Assembly (NCBI GenBank): GCA_963693305.1
Contig: OY855910.1
Span: 21,406,862-21,470,861, forward strand
DNA length: 64,000 nt
Direction: 5' to 3'
Source of the DNA: Meandrina meandrites
Lineage: Eukaryota > Cnidaria > Anthozoa > Scleractinia > Meandrinidae
Positions 59,324 through 63,825 of this stretch are shown here, in pieces. Made by a program: the position numbers and the translations under genes. The notes below the pieces were generated by a model. The model was not told the DNA's origin. It saw only the letters and a list, made by a program, of their open reading frames with translations, and did no database searches. Positions within the stretch are counted from its first letter, which is position 1. Each line of letters starts with the position of its first letter.

Positions 59324-59344
59324 AAAACACAGTCTAAAATGCTA

Positions 59345-59607
59345 CAACCAGTTTCAAAATGGTTGAGACACTCTCCTCAAAAAATGCCATTCCCTTTAAA
59401 CTTGCTCCAAAAATTGGAAAAGAAGTAAGAAATATAGCTTCCGACCCCCCACCCCCCTTTCAAAGTTGTTGCTTAACTAACTCAATGTCATGCGCACAAG
59501 TTAGCAACATTGAGATGGGGGAGGGGGGTGAAAGATTGCTAAGTATTTGAAAATCTGAAAATTACCCAGAAAAGGTGTAGTGTCTCAACAGGTTTTGAAA
59601 ATGGTTG
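59345..59607 (+). repeat. Left 263-bp direct repeat of the hybrid element
   Basis: Identical to 63,450-63,712 except C at 59,401 versus A at 63,506. Each repeat has its own 28-bp terminal inverted repeats and folds further. A C-tract (59,445-59,457) faces a G-tract (59,516-59,528). GTTGCTTAACT (59,468-59,478) faces AGTTAGCAAC (59,499-59,508) around a 20-nt apical loop. A 63-codon open frame inside is a by-product and is not taken as a gene. Confidence 0.9.
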
Positions 59608-59736
59608 TCTCATTGTGTGATATCTTTAACAAGCTAGCATGAAAAGGGTATTCACTTAAAGCAGCTTCAAAATATACCAAAACAAAAAGGAATAATTGTT
59701 TTTTAAGGTATTAGTATAACGAAATCTAAGCATAGC

Positions 59737-59744
59737 CATATAAA
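59737..59744 (+). promoter_or_regulatory. TATA-like box upstream of the transposase
   Basis: ATATAAAG lies about 95 bp before the transposase ATG, outside the direct repeat. Position and sequence only. Confidence 0.35.
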
Positions 59745-59835
59745 GGAATTAAAGGGGTTCGAAAACATTCCAATTTCGAATTTGTGTTTATGACGCAAGA
59801 ATAATTAGGTGTAGAAAAAAAAGAAATCAATCAAG

Positions 59836-60909
59836 ATGGTTTACAACGGTGAAATAGATGCCAAAACAAAGGCGTTTGTAAAGTTTCTAAAGGAGGACAG
59901 TTTCCTAACAGTTAAAGAAATTACAAAAAGATGCAAAGTTTCACGAGCAACTGTTTACCGCTGTGTAAAGCCTAGCAAGATTAAGGAGAACAGGAAACCA
60001 TCTGGTAGACCGCGCAAAGTTACTACACGAGACGAAAGAGTGATTCGAAGAAACATTGCAAAACTGCGCAAAATAGAAGGTAACTTTTCATGCCATCGGC
60101 TAAGAGCACAATGTGGACTGCAACATGTGTCACTGATCACATTCAATAGAGCCTTAAAGCGCATGGGGTATAAGTTTTGTGAGGCAAGAAGAAAAGGCAT
60201 TTTGAGTTCCGCGGATCGCGCGAAAAGGGTTAAGTTTGCGCGAGGAGTACAGACCACGTTTGAAGACGATTTCTGGAAGCATGACGTATGTTTTTACCTG
60301 GATGGTGTAAGCTTCTGGTACAAAAAGAACCCTGCGGATGATGCGAGATCACCACACTCAAAAATATGGCGAAAACGAAACGAAGGACTTGATCCGGGAT
60401 GTGTAGCTAAAGGTTCACACACGGGATCAGGGGGCAGAACTGTTAACATGATTGTAGTAATTTCATACAGGAAAGGTGTTATTTTCTGTGAACAATACCA
60501 AAAGTTAGATGGAGATTACATTGGCGATTTCATTCGTAGAAACTTTCGTAATATATTAAGGAAGAGTGGAAAGCGTAATTCAAAGCTATTCGTTCATGAT
60601 AATTGCCCCGTATTAAACTGCGCAAAGGCACGCCAAGCTCTAAAGGCTATGAGGGCGGAATTATTCACTATACCACCAAGATCACCCGATTTGAATCCCA
60701 TTGAAAATATATTTAATATAGTTAAACGGGAATTGAAAAGACAGGCAATACGAAATAATATAACATACGAGACTTATGAACAATTCTCGGAAAGAGTGAA
60801 ATGCACCCTCTACGCTATGGAAAGTGATGTAATTGACAATACAATCGCTTCGATGAACAAACGCTTACAACTGATAACAAAAAGTAAGGGAAAACGAACA
60901 AAGTACTGA
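59836..60909 (+). CDS. Tc1/mariner-family DD34E transposase, intact
   Basis: 357 codons, uninterrupted. The N-terminal helix-turn-helix is at residues 23-43 (LTVKEITKRCKVSRATVYRC), followed by a GRPRK AT-hook-like link (57-61) and a second HTH-like region to about 115. The RNase-H-like catalytic domain shows FYLDGVSFW (D156), LFVHDNCPV (D255) and SPDLNPIEN (E290). The D255-E290 spacing gives DD34E, the Tc1 signature. The family cuts and pastes at TA, which matches the TA flanks. The length is normal for Tc1 transposases. The start is the first ATG, in the context AAGATGG. No defect is visible, so this copy may still encode an active enzyme. Confidence 0.92.
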   Translation: MVYNGEIDAKTKAFVKFLKEDSFLTVKEITKRCKVSRATVYRCVKPSKIKENRKPSGRPRKVTTRDERVIRRNIAKLRKIEGNFSCHRLRAQCGLQHVSLITFNRALKRMGYKFCEARRKGILSSADRAKRVKFARGVQTTFEDDFWKHDVCFYLDGVSFWYKKNPADDARSPHSKIWRKRNEGLDPGCVAKGSHTGSGGRTVNMIVVISYRKGVIFCEQYQKLDGDYIGDFIRRNFRNILRKSGKRNSKLFVHDNCPVLNCAKARQALKAMRAELFTIPPRSPDLNPIENIFNIVKRELKRQAIRNNITYETYEQFSERVKCTLYAMESDVIDNTIASMNKRLQLITKSKGKRTKY

Positions 60910-61185
60910 GCTTATTATTATTTAGAGGTTTTCGATTATTACTACTGCTGTAAACCATTGTAACGCTGTAAGCCATTGTAACACACTTAGTCACGCACTA
61001 GTGTTCAAGTTGCGAGTAGTTACTAGGCAACACTTTGTTATTTGTGCTACAAAAACTTTTCAAGCTTCTAATCACGCAATTCTTTCTAAATATCACCATG
61101 TAAAACATTTAATGGCAAGAGAAACTTAACTCAATAAATTTGGGAAAGAGTAAACCGCTTAATCTATTTTACATAAAATTTCCCA

Positions 61186-61287
61186 ACGGTCTACATGATT
61201 AGCACGGTCTACATTCTGTTATTAAAGATGAGTTATCTTATACCTTTTTATCTGTATTGTGTAGACTGTGTAGATCGTGTAGACCGT
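61186..61287. repeat. Iteron-like cluster of GTAGACCGT repeats
   Basis: ACGGTCTACA occurs at 61,186 and 61,204 (18 bp apart). In the opposite orientation TGTAGACTG, TGTAGATCG and TGTAGACCG follow each other at exactly 9-bp steps from 61,260 to 61,287. The arms can pair as a hairpin. The cluster sits between the convergent 3' ends of the transposase and Rep genes. It resembles the iterons bound by rolling-circle Rep proteins; this role is inference. Confidence 0.7.
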
Positions 61288-61353
61288 GGGATCCGGGAGG
61301 TGGTGTTTAATTGCACAAAACTTAGCCCAAATAAAGGTTTGCAATGAGTCACT

Positions 61354-62797
61354 TCAGTTCAAAATGAGAGAGGCAAAACATTTTGGACATTTGGGGATTT
61401 CCTTCTGGTTTCGTTCTTCTATTCTTACATTAAAATGAAAAATTTTCCAGCGCACTGCCATCATTTCTGTTTCCCGTTCATCAATCACGCCACTCTTAAT
61501 GTAAATAATGGGCTGTTTCCCTGTGCAAAATATCGGAGTGTCTTTGTCAAAGACAATGTCTCTAGCATAATGGGTCTTTGGAGCAGGCAAATGTACAATT
61601 TGTCCCTCAAGCATTAGAAGAAAATCGTGCCACTGGATTACTTGTTGCGACCACCGGAAATCGTTCAGAAAAATGCACTCAGCATCTTCGGCTCCAACCC
61701 ATGCAAAAGAGCTACACGCCGGATTACAAAAAGTGTTGTAAACAGATGTAAGAGGGTTCAGTATAAATGTCTTGGCAGAATTCGCGGGTCCACAAATCAT
61801 TATGTTTCTGAATTTGCTGCGCCCCTTATCTAGAAGTTCCTTTATGGACTCTGTAAATGTTTCCTTGCATATACCATTTTGCTGTAGCACTTCAAGTGCA
61901 CAAGAAAGCCACTGTCCTTCACATCCGGTAACACATTCGCCTTGCTCAGCCTCTTCAAGAATTTCAATGCGCGATTTGTTAGACCTGTCTAGCTTTTCTT
62001 GTGCGGTTCTCATTTCCCATGCTGTAGTCTAAACCTCTGCAACTACACGAGGTCCTCTATTTACAATAAACTCAGCAACGTCGAATTTTCCTTCCATTTT
62101 CTGCTTATTTGCAAACACCAACAATTCCGTTCTGTTTTTAATACCTTTTTGGACTATTAATTCAGAAAGGTCGAATGCAGATAGGCGTTTTTTTCGTTTG
62201 TTGCGGCTCGATCTCTTATCTTCTTCACAAACGCTTCCTTCAATATCCAAGTTAATGTCATCCGTGTCATCATCGGAGCTGGCGGTTTTTGGAAGCTCGC
62301 GCTTTGTAAACACTTTCTTTACACTAGAGGCAGCATTAGTCTTCGGAGGTTTTGAATTCCACAAGTCTGGATGATTGTCGCTTTGCAAAAATTCTTGGTC
62401 TTCTTTTACAACATATTTCCAAGCGCTATAATAATTATGATGCAGATTGGAAAAAGTAATTCTTTGAGGGTAGCCACCTTTTGCATTTGTCCAGTTTAAT
62501 AGCCAAGTGATAGTGATATCCTCCGTTTTCGTGGGACTCTCTGCAACAAGCCCAATGCAAAACATCTGAATTTGTTTCCTTGAAAGAACAAACAACAGCT
62601 TCGGCAAAAGATTTGCGCGTTAGAAACTTGTCCAAATTTGATTGGCTGTAGGTCACCAGATAAACCTGCCTCACAGCTGAGGATTTTAATTCCGTTAATA
62701 GATCTTCTTTTCCTTTTGTCGCACTGTGGCTTACGTTTTCATCACATCCATCATCGCTAGACTCGGAGTCAGTTCCATAAACCTCAAGAAACTCCAT
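61354..62797 (-). pseudogene. CRESS-like Rep: HUH endonuclease plus SF3 helicase, broken twice
   Basis: The likely start is the Met at 62,797 (MEFLEVYGTD); an open frame extends upstream to 62,899. RCR motif 1 is QVYLVTY. Motif 2 is GYHYHLAI (HUH, about 62,515-62,507). Motif 3 is YVVK with the candidate nicking tyrosine at 62,415-62,413. The helicase part (from 62,013) shows Walker A GPANSAKT (61,791-61,768), Walker B ECIFLND, a motif C-like TPIFCTGK, and a late arginine RW. It ends with a CPKC pair. Breaks: the frame changes near 62,456, between motifs 2 and 3, and an in-frame TAG at 62,031-62,029 separates the nickase part from the helicase part. Walker A has Ala in place of the usual Gly before Lys. 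The three segments are collinear, so this was one gene. Proteins of this kind replicate single-stranded DNA circles by rolling circle. Confidence 0.82.
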
Positions 62798-62899
62798 ACA
62801 CGTACAGAAATAGCAACCGTTGTAAATAAAATACAAAGCGCCGTTTGACGCGACTAAACGCGCAGTTCGTTCTAATATGAAACCACTGAGACTAACCAA

Positions 62900-63449
62900 A
62901 GGTATTTCCGAGAACTTTGTGAGAAATATACAATTTAAAACATATATTAAGGAAACGTGGTAACAACCGAATAAATTGAGCGAATTTCCTTCTCGTACCG
63001 ATACTTAATAGTTTTCTGGAAAATCACTTATCATCTCAATCTATGTTCTATTCGTTGCGTTGACGTAAGAAAGTGTTATCTCTGAAATCTGGCAACGTTG
63101 CCTGCGTAAACCAGTACAGAAAAAAAAATTTGGCGATCTTTTAACACTGTACATTGCGTTCTTAACTTCACCTCAAGCCAAACAAATCCAAAAAGCACTG
63201 GACTTCGCTTTATTTAGCACTTTACTGCCATTTTCCTTACTCCTCCCTTTTTGCAGTCAATTAGCGCTAATGACGTCAAAGACAGAAATGCAAAAAATTC
63301 ACTTCTTTATTGTGAAATTTCCAAACCGCGAAAGTTAGAGAAAAGAAATTCATATTTTTTAAAACGATACATTAAAAAGAAATAGTGCTGTAAATTTCAT
63401 CACTTGCTTAGGCTATAAAAGATAGTTATAACGGATTGAAGTACTCAGA
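62900..63449. other. Non-coding right part of the hybrid element
   Basis: 550 bp upstream of the Rep gene and before the right direct repeat. ATATATTAAGG near 62,942 is AT-rich enough to serve as a minus-strand TATA region. GGCTATAAAAGATAG at 63,410 is a TATA-like box pointing rightward into the direct repeat. No ORF. Confidence 0.4.
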
Positions 63450-63712
63450 CAACCAGTTTCAAAATGGTTGAGACACTCTCCTCAAAAAATGCCATTCCCT
63501 TTAAAATTGCTCCAAAAATTGGAAAAGAAGTAAGAAATATAGCTTCCGACCCCCCACCCCCCTTTCAAAGTTGTTGCTTAACTAACTCAATGTCATGCGC
63601 ACAAGTTAGCAACATTGAGATGGGGGAGGGGGGTGAAAGATTGCTAAGTATTTGAAAATCTGAAAATTACCCAGAAAAGGTGTAGTGTCTCAACAGGTTT
63701 TGAAAATGGTTG
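63450..63712 (+). repeat. Right 263-bp direct repeat of the hybrid element
   Basis: Same orientation as the left copy, one base different, offset 4,105 bp with no indel. Its right border touches TA; its left border is preceded by GA. Confidence 0.9.
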
Positions 63713-63825
63713 TAGCTAGTCATTTCATACGCTCATTTCAGGCTAGTAAGCACACATATTTTTTTAACATGTACTTTTATTGTTGCCTGCTGCTCTGGAA
63801 GTACTTGTATACGAGATAACTTTTT

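What the first reader, a model, noticed from the sequence alone, without database searches (positions are those of the whole stretch)
59345..63712. One TA-flanked element combines a cut-and-paste DD34E transposase with a rolling-circle HUH-SF3 Rep
Seen: TA flanks only the outer borders; 28-bp inverted ends; intact Tc1-type transposase on the plus strand; convergent Rep gene with HUH, YxxK and Walker motifs; both enclosed by 263-bp direct repeats. Established: Tc1/mariner elements normally carry only a transposase and integrate at TA; HUH-SF3 Reps belong to CRESS-type DNA replicons. Inference: the element may integrate by transposase and amplify as a circle by Rep, i.e. a hybrid transposon-replicon. 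I do not recall a described Tc1/mariner lineage with this gene pair and long direct ends.
Basis: partly seen in the sequence, partly recalled or inferred. Interest (0 to 1): 0.95.

Follow-up and report, generated by a model that had tools for sequence, protein, structure and literature searches.

The report
Tc1/mariner transposon carrying its own replicon
One TA-flanked mobile element in a likely cnidarian genome holds both a Tc1/mariner transposase gene and a virus-type replication-initiator gene (broken in this copy), a pairing repeated in several related families, so it is predicted to move by cut-and-paste and would likely also multiply as a DNA circle.

Summary
The 4,368-bp unit (59345-63712) is real and is one element. 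Its 263-bp long terminal direct repeats (LTDRs) differ at one base, carry their own inverted ends, and are flanked by TA only on the outside. A near-identical copy on another chromosome has the same outer TA and inner TC/GA borders; a third keeps the 5' TA and both inner borders. Of 24 Rep loci examined, 16 have a Tc1-type transposase, always convergent with Rep; 8 have none nearby. Six families with LTDRs were mapped; one locus is a perfect head-to-tail dimer. The window's transposase frame is open, but its Rep is broken twice; another copy has an open Rep frame. The Rep family combines a CRESS-like HUH nuclease fold with a parvovirus/papillomavirus-like SF3 helicase. Between the genes lies an inverted array of five 9-bp repeats, a candidate origin; comparable arrays are clear in only some other families. 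Likely mechanism (inferred): transposase moves the outer ends, Rep amplifies a one-LTDR circle. No circle, empty site or activity was shown. Closest known: KolobokP (same LTDR design) and a truffle Rep+transposase element. This combination was not found in ten paper searches.

The parts
59343..59344 (.). TA flanking the 5' outer border (target-site duplication, with 63713-63714)
59345..59607 (+). 5' long terminal direct repeat (LTDR) with its own imperfect inverted ends CAACC...GGTTG
   Evidence: same borders in L009 and L010
59608..59609 (.). inner 5' border, TC (not TA)
   Evidence: TC also in L009, L010, L012, C2:2.00 and C8:35.75
59836..60909 (+). Tc1-type DD34E transposase, 357 aa, open frame
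61183..61290 (.). candidate Rep origin: five ~9-bp repeats, ACGGTCTAC twice and three related boxes on the other strand, in a potential hairpin (DNA fold z -5.9, 0 of 200 shuffles)
61354..62797 (-). HUH-SF3 replication initiator (Rep), interrupted in this copy by a frame change and an in-frame stop
63448..63449 (.). inner 3' border, GA (not TA)
63450..63712 (+). 3' long terminal direct repeat
63713..63714 (.). TA flanking the 3' outer border

Best explanation
This is a single two-gene mobile element of the form LTDR-INT-LTDR that likely moves as a Tc1/mariner transposon through its outer TA-flanked ends and is predicted to multiply as a one-LTDR circle started by Rep at a likely origin, the repeat array between the genes. 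Shown: the unit, its borders, copies of the same element (one TA-flanked at both ends on another chromosome, one with only its 5' end kept), recurrence of the convergent gene pair and of LTDRs in several families, single-LTDR insertions at TA, and one perfect head-to-tail dimer flanked by TA. Inferred: (1) recombination between LTDRs, or Rep action, releases a ~4.1-kb LTDR-INT circle; (2) Rep nicks and unwinds at the iteron array, and rolling-circle copying makes head-to-tail multimers; (3) transposase cuts at the outermost inverted ends of an LTDR-INT-LTDR (or longer) stretch and inserts it at TA; (4) the non-TA inner borders steer the transposase to the outer ends. The present copy could move but would need Rep from another copy to replicate.
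For: Copies: C7:11183010-11190998 and C1:34434101-34441497, 96-99% identical over INT-bearing stretches, with inner borders GGTTG|TCTCATT and CTCAGA|CAACC; outer TA at both ends on C7 and at the 5' end on C1, whose 3' LTDR is truncated. Pairing: transposase convergent with Rep in 16 of 24 Rep loci, no other arrangement in those 16 (in L010 across a nested insert). Second family L012: LTDRs 96-97% alike, TA outside, TC/GA inside. C2:2.00: same rule. Dimer at C1:62011140-62019571: three identical 258-bp repeats, the two units identical throughout, TA outside, both genes open in the pieces listed. Candidate origin: 5 boxes, reached by 0 of 40 shuffles in the window and 1 of 40 for the same array in the C7 copy; like boxes at the same place in L012-L014, where coding DNA is ~64-75% identical, significant in L014 only (0 of 40); another box, ACGGTTCAC, 7 copies, in L058 (0 of 40). 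Selection: pN 0.25 vs pS 0.80 (transposase) and 0.20 vs 0.84 (Rep) between the window family and L012. Elsewhere: transposase and Rep relatives share exact contig lengths 6 times above 5 kb, 0.04 expected.
Against: No circular junction, read data, expression or activity was available. Dimers and solo LTDRs can also come from unequal crossover, as argued for KolobokP. 8 of 24 Rep loci have no transposase within about 3.4-4.1 kb on the 3' side. Iteron counts do not stand out in L012 (8 of 40 shuffles), L013 (35 of 40), L035, L038, L039, L040, L042, L044 and L048 (3 to 40 of 40), and no stable hairpin stands out in L012, L013, L039, L040, L042. Tree concordance of 12 paired proteins is weak (r 0.29, p 0.025). 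Among close copies dN/dS is 0.27-0.78, so these copies are not under strong constraint. In C7:9.145 the inner borders are TA and the outer are not; C8:35.75 lacks outer TA; the C1:62.01 dimer has TA at one inner border. No empty site was obtained.
Confidence: 0.6

Rival explanations
1. Composite-like transposon without an episome: transposase moves LTDR-INT-LTDR, and Rep nicks the chromosome to provoke unequal crossover or gene conversion in place, the role proposed for the homing nuclease of KolobokP.
For: Dimer, solo LTDRs and outer TA are what KolobokP shows (PMC9587614, passages); no circle was seen.
Against: A helicase-bearing initiator plus an iteron array with hairpin fits replication better than a simple nick.
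Confidence: 0.22
2. Integrated remnant of a small ssDNA virus that used a captured transposase to enter chromosomes and has lost its capsid gene.
For: The Rep fold is closest to viral Reps; parvovirus- and geminivirus-like repeats are known in genomes (PMC3198968, section 8); RepE1 cressvirus fragments joined to cnidarian DNA were reported from an anemone dataset (PMC11071296, passages).
Against: No further ORF of more than 100 aa in the unit; the two-gene, LTDR-flanked plan recurs across families; no relative was found in IMG/VR in four scans.
Confidence: 0.1
3. Rep itself drives movement (Helitron- or Replitron-like, recalled) and the transposase is a passenger.
For: HUH proteins can transpose DNA (recalled); Rep has been kept under purifying selection between families.
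Against: TA duplications and inverted ends are those of Tc1/mariner; solo LTDRs also sit at TA.
Confidence: 0.05
4. Accidental nesting: two small non-autonomous elements trapped a Tc1 gene and an endogenous Rep.
For: Solo 263-bp units exist at TA sites.
Against: Inner borders are identical in three copies and not TA; the gene pair recurs in 16 of 24 Rep loci and in several families.
Confidence: 0.02

Closest known systems
KolobokP (Kojima and Bao 2022, PMC9587614; abstract and passages seen)
   Same: INT flanked by long terminal direct repeats that have their own short inverted ends; solo LTDRs; (LTDR-INT)n multimers with target duplications; transposase plus a second DNA-cutting gene.
   Different: Kolobok transposase and other target duplications; accessory gene is a His-Me homing nuclease, not an HUH-SF3 Rep; LTDRs of ~450 or ~660 bp, here about 174-287. 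The paper calls LTDRs unlike any other DNA transposon.
Geminivirus-like transposon of Tuber melanosporum (Liu et al. 2011, PMC3198968; passages and section 8 seen)
   Same: A Rep-like ORF and transposase ORFs inside one repeat with terminal inverted repeats (37 bp).
   Different: Fungal, geminivirus-like Rep, no obvious target duplications, no direct terminal repeats mentioned; transposase type not stated in the section read.
Tc1/mariner (Sleeping Beauty, Mos1)
   Same: DD34E DDE_3 transposase, TA target, terminal inverted repeats.
   Different: Known elements usually hold only a transposase (recalled); here a Rep, a candidate origin and LTDRs are added.
AAV Rep68, papillomavirus E1, CRESS Reps
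   Same: HUH nuclease-type fold followed by SF3 helicase.
   Different: No capsid gene in the unit; integrated as a TA-flanked transposon; identity to the solved structures listed about 9-18%.
RepE1 cressvirus contigs from sea anemone datasets (PMC11071296, passages seen)
   Same: E1-like Rep linked with cnidarian DNA.
   Different: The reported one carries a capsid gene; the word transposase does not occur in that text.
DENSOV_HM and PIVE parvovirus-like repeats (named in PMC3198968)
   Same: NS1-like sequences repeated in hydrozoan and planarian genomes.
   Different: No transposase partner is described in the section read.

Membership tests
Tc1/mariner | DDE transposase with DD34E spacing and N-terminal HTH | tested here: met
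Tc1/mariner | TA target-site duplication and terminal inverted repeats | tested here: met
   window and C7 copy TA on both sides, C1 copy TA on its remaining 5' side; 7 of 14 single LTDRs fetched (of 19 listed) strictly TA on both sides, 2 more with a change at one end
Tc1/mariner | empty site restored to a single TA | not tested
   whole-genome requests 119, 131, 139 did not complete; one search compared joined flanks only with sequences already held and found none
KolobokP | LTDR-INT-LTDR with inverted ends inside each LTDR, solos and multimers | tested here: met
KolobokP | Kolobok-type transposase | tested here: not met
   Pfam DDE_3 (above cut-off) and HTH_Tnp_Tc3_2 (below it), PDB Sleeping Beauty and Mos1
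KolobokP | His-Me finger nuclease | tested here: not met
   no such Pfam match in the four ORFs scanned
CRESS-DNA virus | HUH nuclease plus SF3 helicase Rep | tested here: met
   on the family; broken in this copy
CRESS-DNA virus | capsid gene | tested here: not met
   no further ORF of more than 100 aa in INT
CRESS-DNA virus | origin hairpin with conserved nonanucleotide | tested here: inconclusive
   hairpin and iterons present; loop not conserved between families
Parvovirus | terminal hairpins and VP gene | tested here: not met
   ends are direct repeats with short inverted ends; no VP-sized ORF
Helitron | no target duplication, Rep fused to an SF1 helicase (definition recalled) | tested here: not met
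   TA duplication; SF3-type helicase fold
Truffle geminivirus-like transposon | Rep plus transposase within terminal inverted repeats | tested here: met
   same kinds of gene and ends; homology of the two elements was not tested

The most novel reading that the evidence does not exclude
A hybrid transposon-replicon lineage, at least in marine animals, that alternates between a chromosomal Tc1/mariner state and a self-replicating circular episome: its Rep fires a family-specific iteron origin to make head-to-tail multimers, and its transposase reinserts LTDR-bracketed units at TA. It would be a DNA counterpart of an LTR element and a living link between cut-and-paste transposons and small ssDNA replicons.
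Probability: 0.45. Interest if true: 0.93.

Novelty: new variant of a known kind. Interest (0 to 1): 0.82.

Why it matters
Tc1/mariner elements are thought to gain copies only through host repair or replication timing (recalled). An element that brings its own initiator and origin would amplify between jumps, and would explain how long terminal direct repeats can be made and kept alike in a DNA transposon. It also gives a concrete route by which ssDNA viruses and transposons exchange parts, and it is directly testable by looking for ~4.1-kb circles.

Tried and rejected
Accidental nesting was rejected because of the recurring families and non-TA inner borders. The idea that the C1:34.43 copy's divergent 5' LTDR shows insertion of a circle into an older solo LTDR was checked and dropped: the differences are mostly indels. 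Tree concordance was tried and is weak: r 0.29, p 0.025 over 12 pairs; leaving out either of two pairs raises r to 0.46-0.50, so these may be chance length coincidences or exchanges. The contig-length peak near 4 kb (26 of 120 transposase and 22 of 110 full-Rep proteins at 3,500-4,499 bp) was not used as proof of circles, because identical terminal repeats alone can make assemblers stop at one unit. IMG/VR and GTDB genomes (Rep only) gave no relative. A printed account of this pair was sought in ten paper searches (one returned no paper). PMC9587614 was seen as abstract and passages, PMC3198968 as passages and section 8, PMC11071296 as passages, the rest as search listings. Repbase could not be searched, and most subscription papers are not held.
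Full report
What is there. The unit at 59345-63712 is bounded by TA on both sides (59343-59344, 63713-63714) and by two 263-bp direct repeats that differ at one base. Each repeat has its own imperfect inverted ends (CAACCAG... / ...TGGTTG). At the inner borders the dinucleotides are TC and GA, not TA. Between the repeats lie a plus-strand Tc1-type transposase (357 aa, open) and a minus-strand Rep gene; the genes point at each other. The assembly is unnamed; the named relatives of Rep are from Acropora, Actinostola, Asterias and Apostichopus, the closest over most of the query from Acropora cervicornis, so a cnidarian host is likely.

The transposase. Pfam DDE_3 E=7e-17 and, below its cut-off, HTH_Tnp_Tc3_2; the closest solved structure by sequence is Sleeping Beauty; D156, D255 and E290 are invariant in the window protein and 19 relatives, giving DD34E. 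491 relatives were found, the best 94% identical.

One element, many copies. The genome is 551 Mb in 56 contigs. Two more copies at 96-99% identity lie on C7 and C1, each split by another insertion. All three share the inner borders; both outer TA are present in the window and C7 copies, while the C1 copy keeps only its 5' end. One search lists 19 single LTDRs (a lower bound, 40 of 123 candidates scored); of the 14 fetched, 7 are strictly TA-flanked on both sides, 2 more have a change at one end, 4 have TA on one side only (two of these are truncated and two share the same flanks), and 1 (L025) has none. The usual context is CTA|...|TAG.

Other families. From 76 Rep matches, 24 places were examined for a neighbour (the two units of the dimer counted as two); the remaining places, small fragments, were not. 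In 16 of 24 a transposase lies 3'-to-3' with Rep. In 8 none lies within about 3.4-4.1 kb on that side; seven of these carry stop codons and the eighth (C6:23.76) is in pieces. In the flanks held, no direct repeat brackets Rep at the seven tested. LTDRs were mapped in six families: the window's; L012 (TA outside, TC/GA inside); C2:2.00 (same rule); C8:35.75 (TC/GA inside, no outer TA, 3' LTDR doubled); C1:62.01 (TA outside; TA and GA inside); C7:9.145 (85% LTDRs, TA inside, not outside). C5:16.12 gave no direct repeat.

The dimer. At C1:62011140-62019571 three identical 258-bp repeats bracket two units of 4,087 bp that are identical throughout (and apart from one empty slice that one search covers), with both genes open in the pieces listed. 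This is what insertion of a rolling-circle dimer would leave; unequal crossover would also do it.

A candidate origin. Between the genes of the window element are two ACGGTCTAC boxes and three related boxes on the other strand 9 bp apart, able to fold back (DNA z -5.9, 0 of 200 shuffles). Five boxes are reached by 0 of 40 shuffles in the window and by 1 of 40 for the same array in the C7 copy. Like boxes stand at the same place in L012, L013 and L014, where coding DNA is only ~64-75% identical and the loop is not conserved; by count they are significant in L014 (0 of 40) but not in L012 (8 of 40) or L013 (35 of 40). L058 has seven boxes of another sequence, ACGGTTCAC (0 of 40). L037 reaches 1 of 40 with a different, AT-rich word; the other seven regions do not stand out (3 to 40 of 40). 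In hairpin strength, 7 of 13 regions are reached by at most 1 of 30 shuffles (window, L014, L035, L038, L044, L048, L058), L037 by 3 of 30; L012, L013, L039, L040 and L042 do not stand out. So the origin is well supported for some families and unseen in others.

Selection and linkage elsewhere. Between the window family and L012, pN/pS is 0.25/0.80 for transposase and 0.20/0.84 for Rep, synonymous sites being saturated, so both genes were kept while families diverged; among the close copies dN/dS is 0.27-0.78. In public proteins, exact contig-length coincidences between 120 transposases and 229 Reps number 6 above 5 kb (0.04 expected, maximum 1 over 120 offsets), 5 at 3-5 kb (0.8 expected, maximum 4) and 1 below 3 kb (1.75 expected). 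Same length is taken as same contig; this is inferred. The two gene trees agree only weakly.

Reading. The parts fit a hybrid: transposase for integration at TA, Rep plus iterons for copying a one-LTDR circle, LTDRs as the place where circles form and from which new units are cut. Only the architecture is shown. KolobokP is the nearest design and the truffle element the nearest gene pairing; neither, as far as read, has this combination.

Noticed in passing
L010:2510-5625: An element with a transposase-like ORF (starting with a THAP-like motif, recalled) is inserted inside the candidate origin loop of the C1 copy.
   Followed up: partly
L009:4606-8194: A 3.6-kb insertion near the right end of INT in the C7 copy.
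   Followed up: no
G000:C11:20378328-20382383: Tandem array, 1,245-bp spacing, whose units match the end of INT and part of the LTDR at ~69%.
   Followed up: no
Window Rep and relatives such as P0001, P0004-P0009: Walker A GPANSAKT lacks the glycine before lysine in a subgroup.
   Followed up: partly
L062 (C8:35751151-35751900) and L063: 120-bp tandem repeats abut the 5' LTDR of the C8 element, and its 3' LTDR is doubled head to tail.
   Followed up: no
L025: A single LTDR flanked by GA and GA rather than TA, its left flank resembling the inner INT border.
   Followed up: no
L031, L043: Rep loci without transposase that carry a 154-bp perfect inverted repeat and a 156-bp palindrome.
   Followed up: no
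L068, L069 (C7:9142500-9150000): The C7:9.145 element sits inside a large diverged satellite-like array.
   Followed up: no
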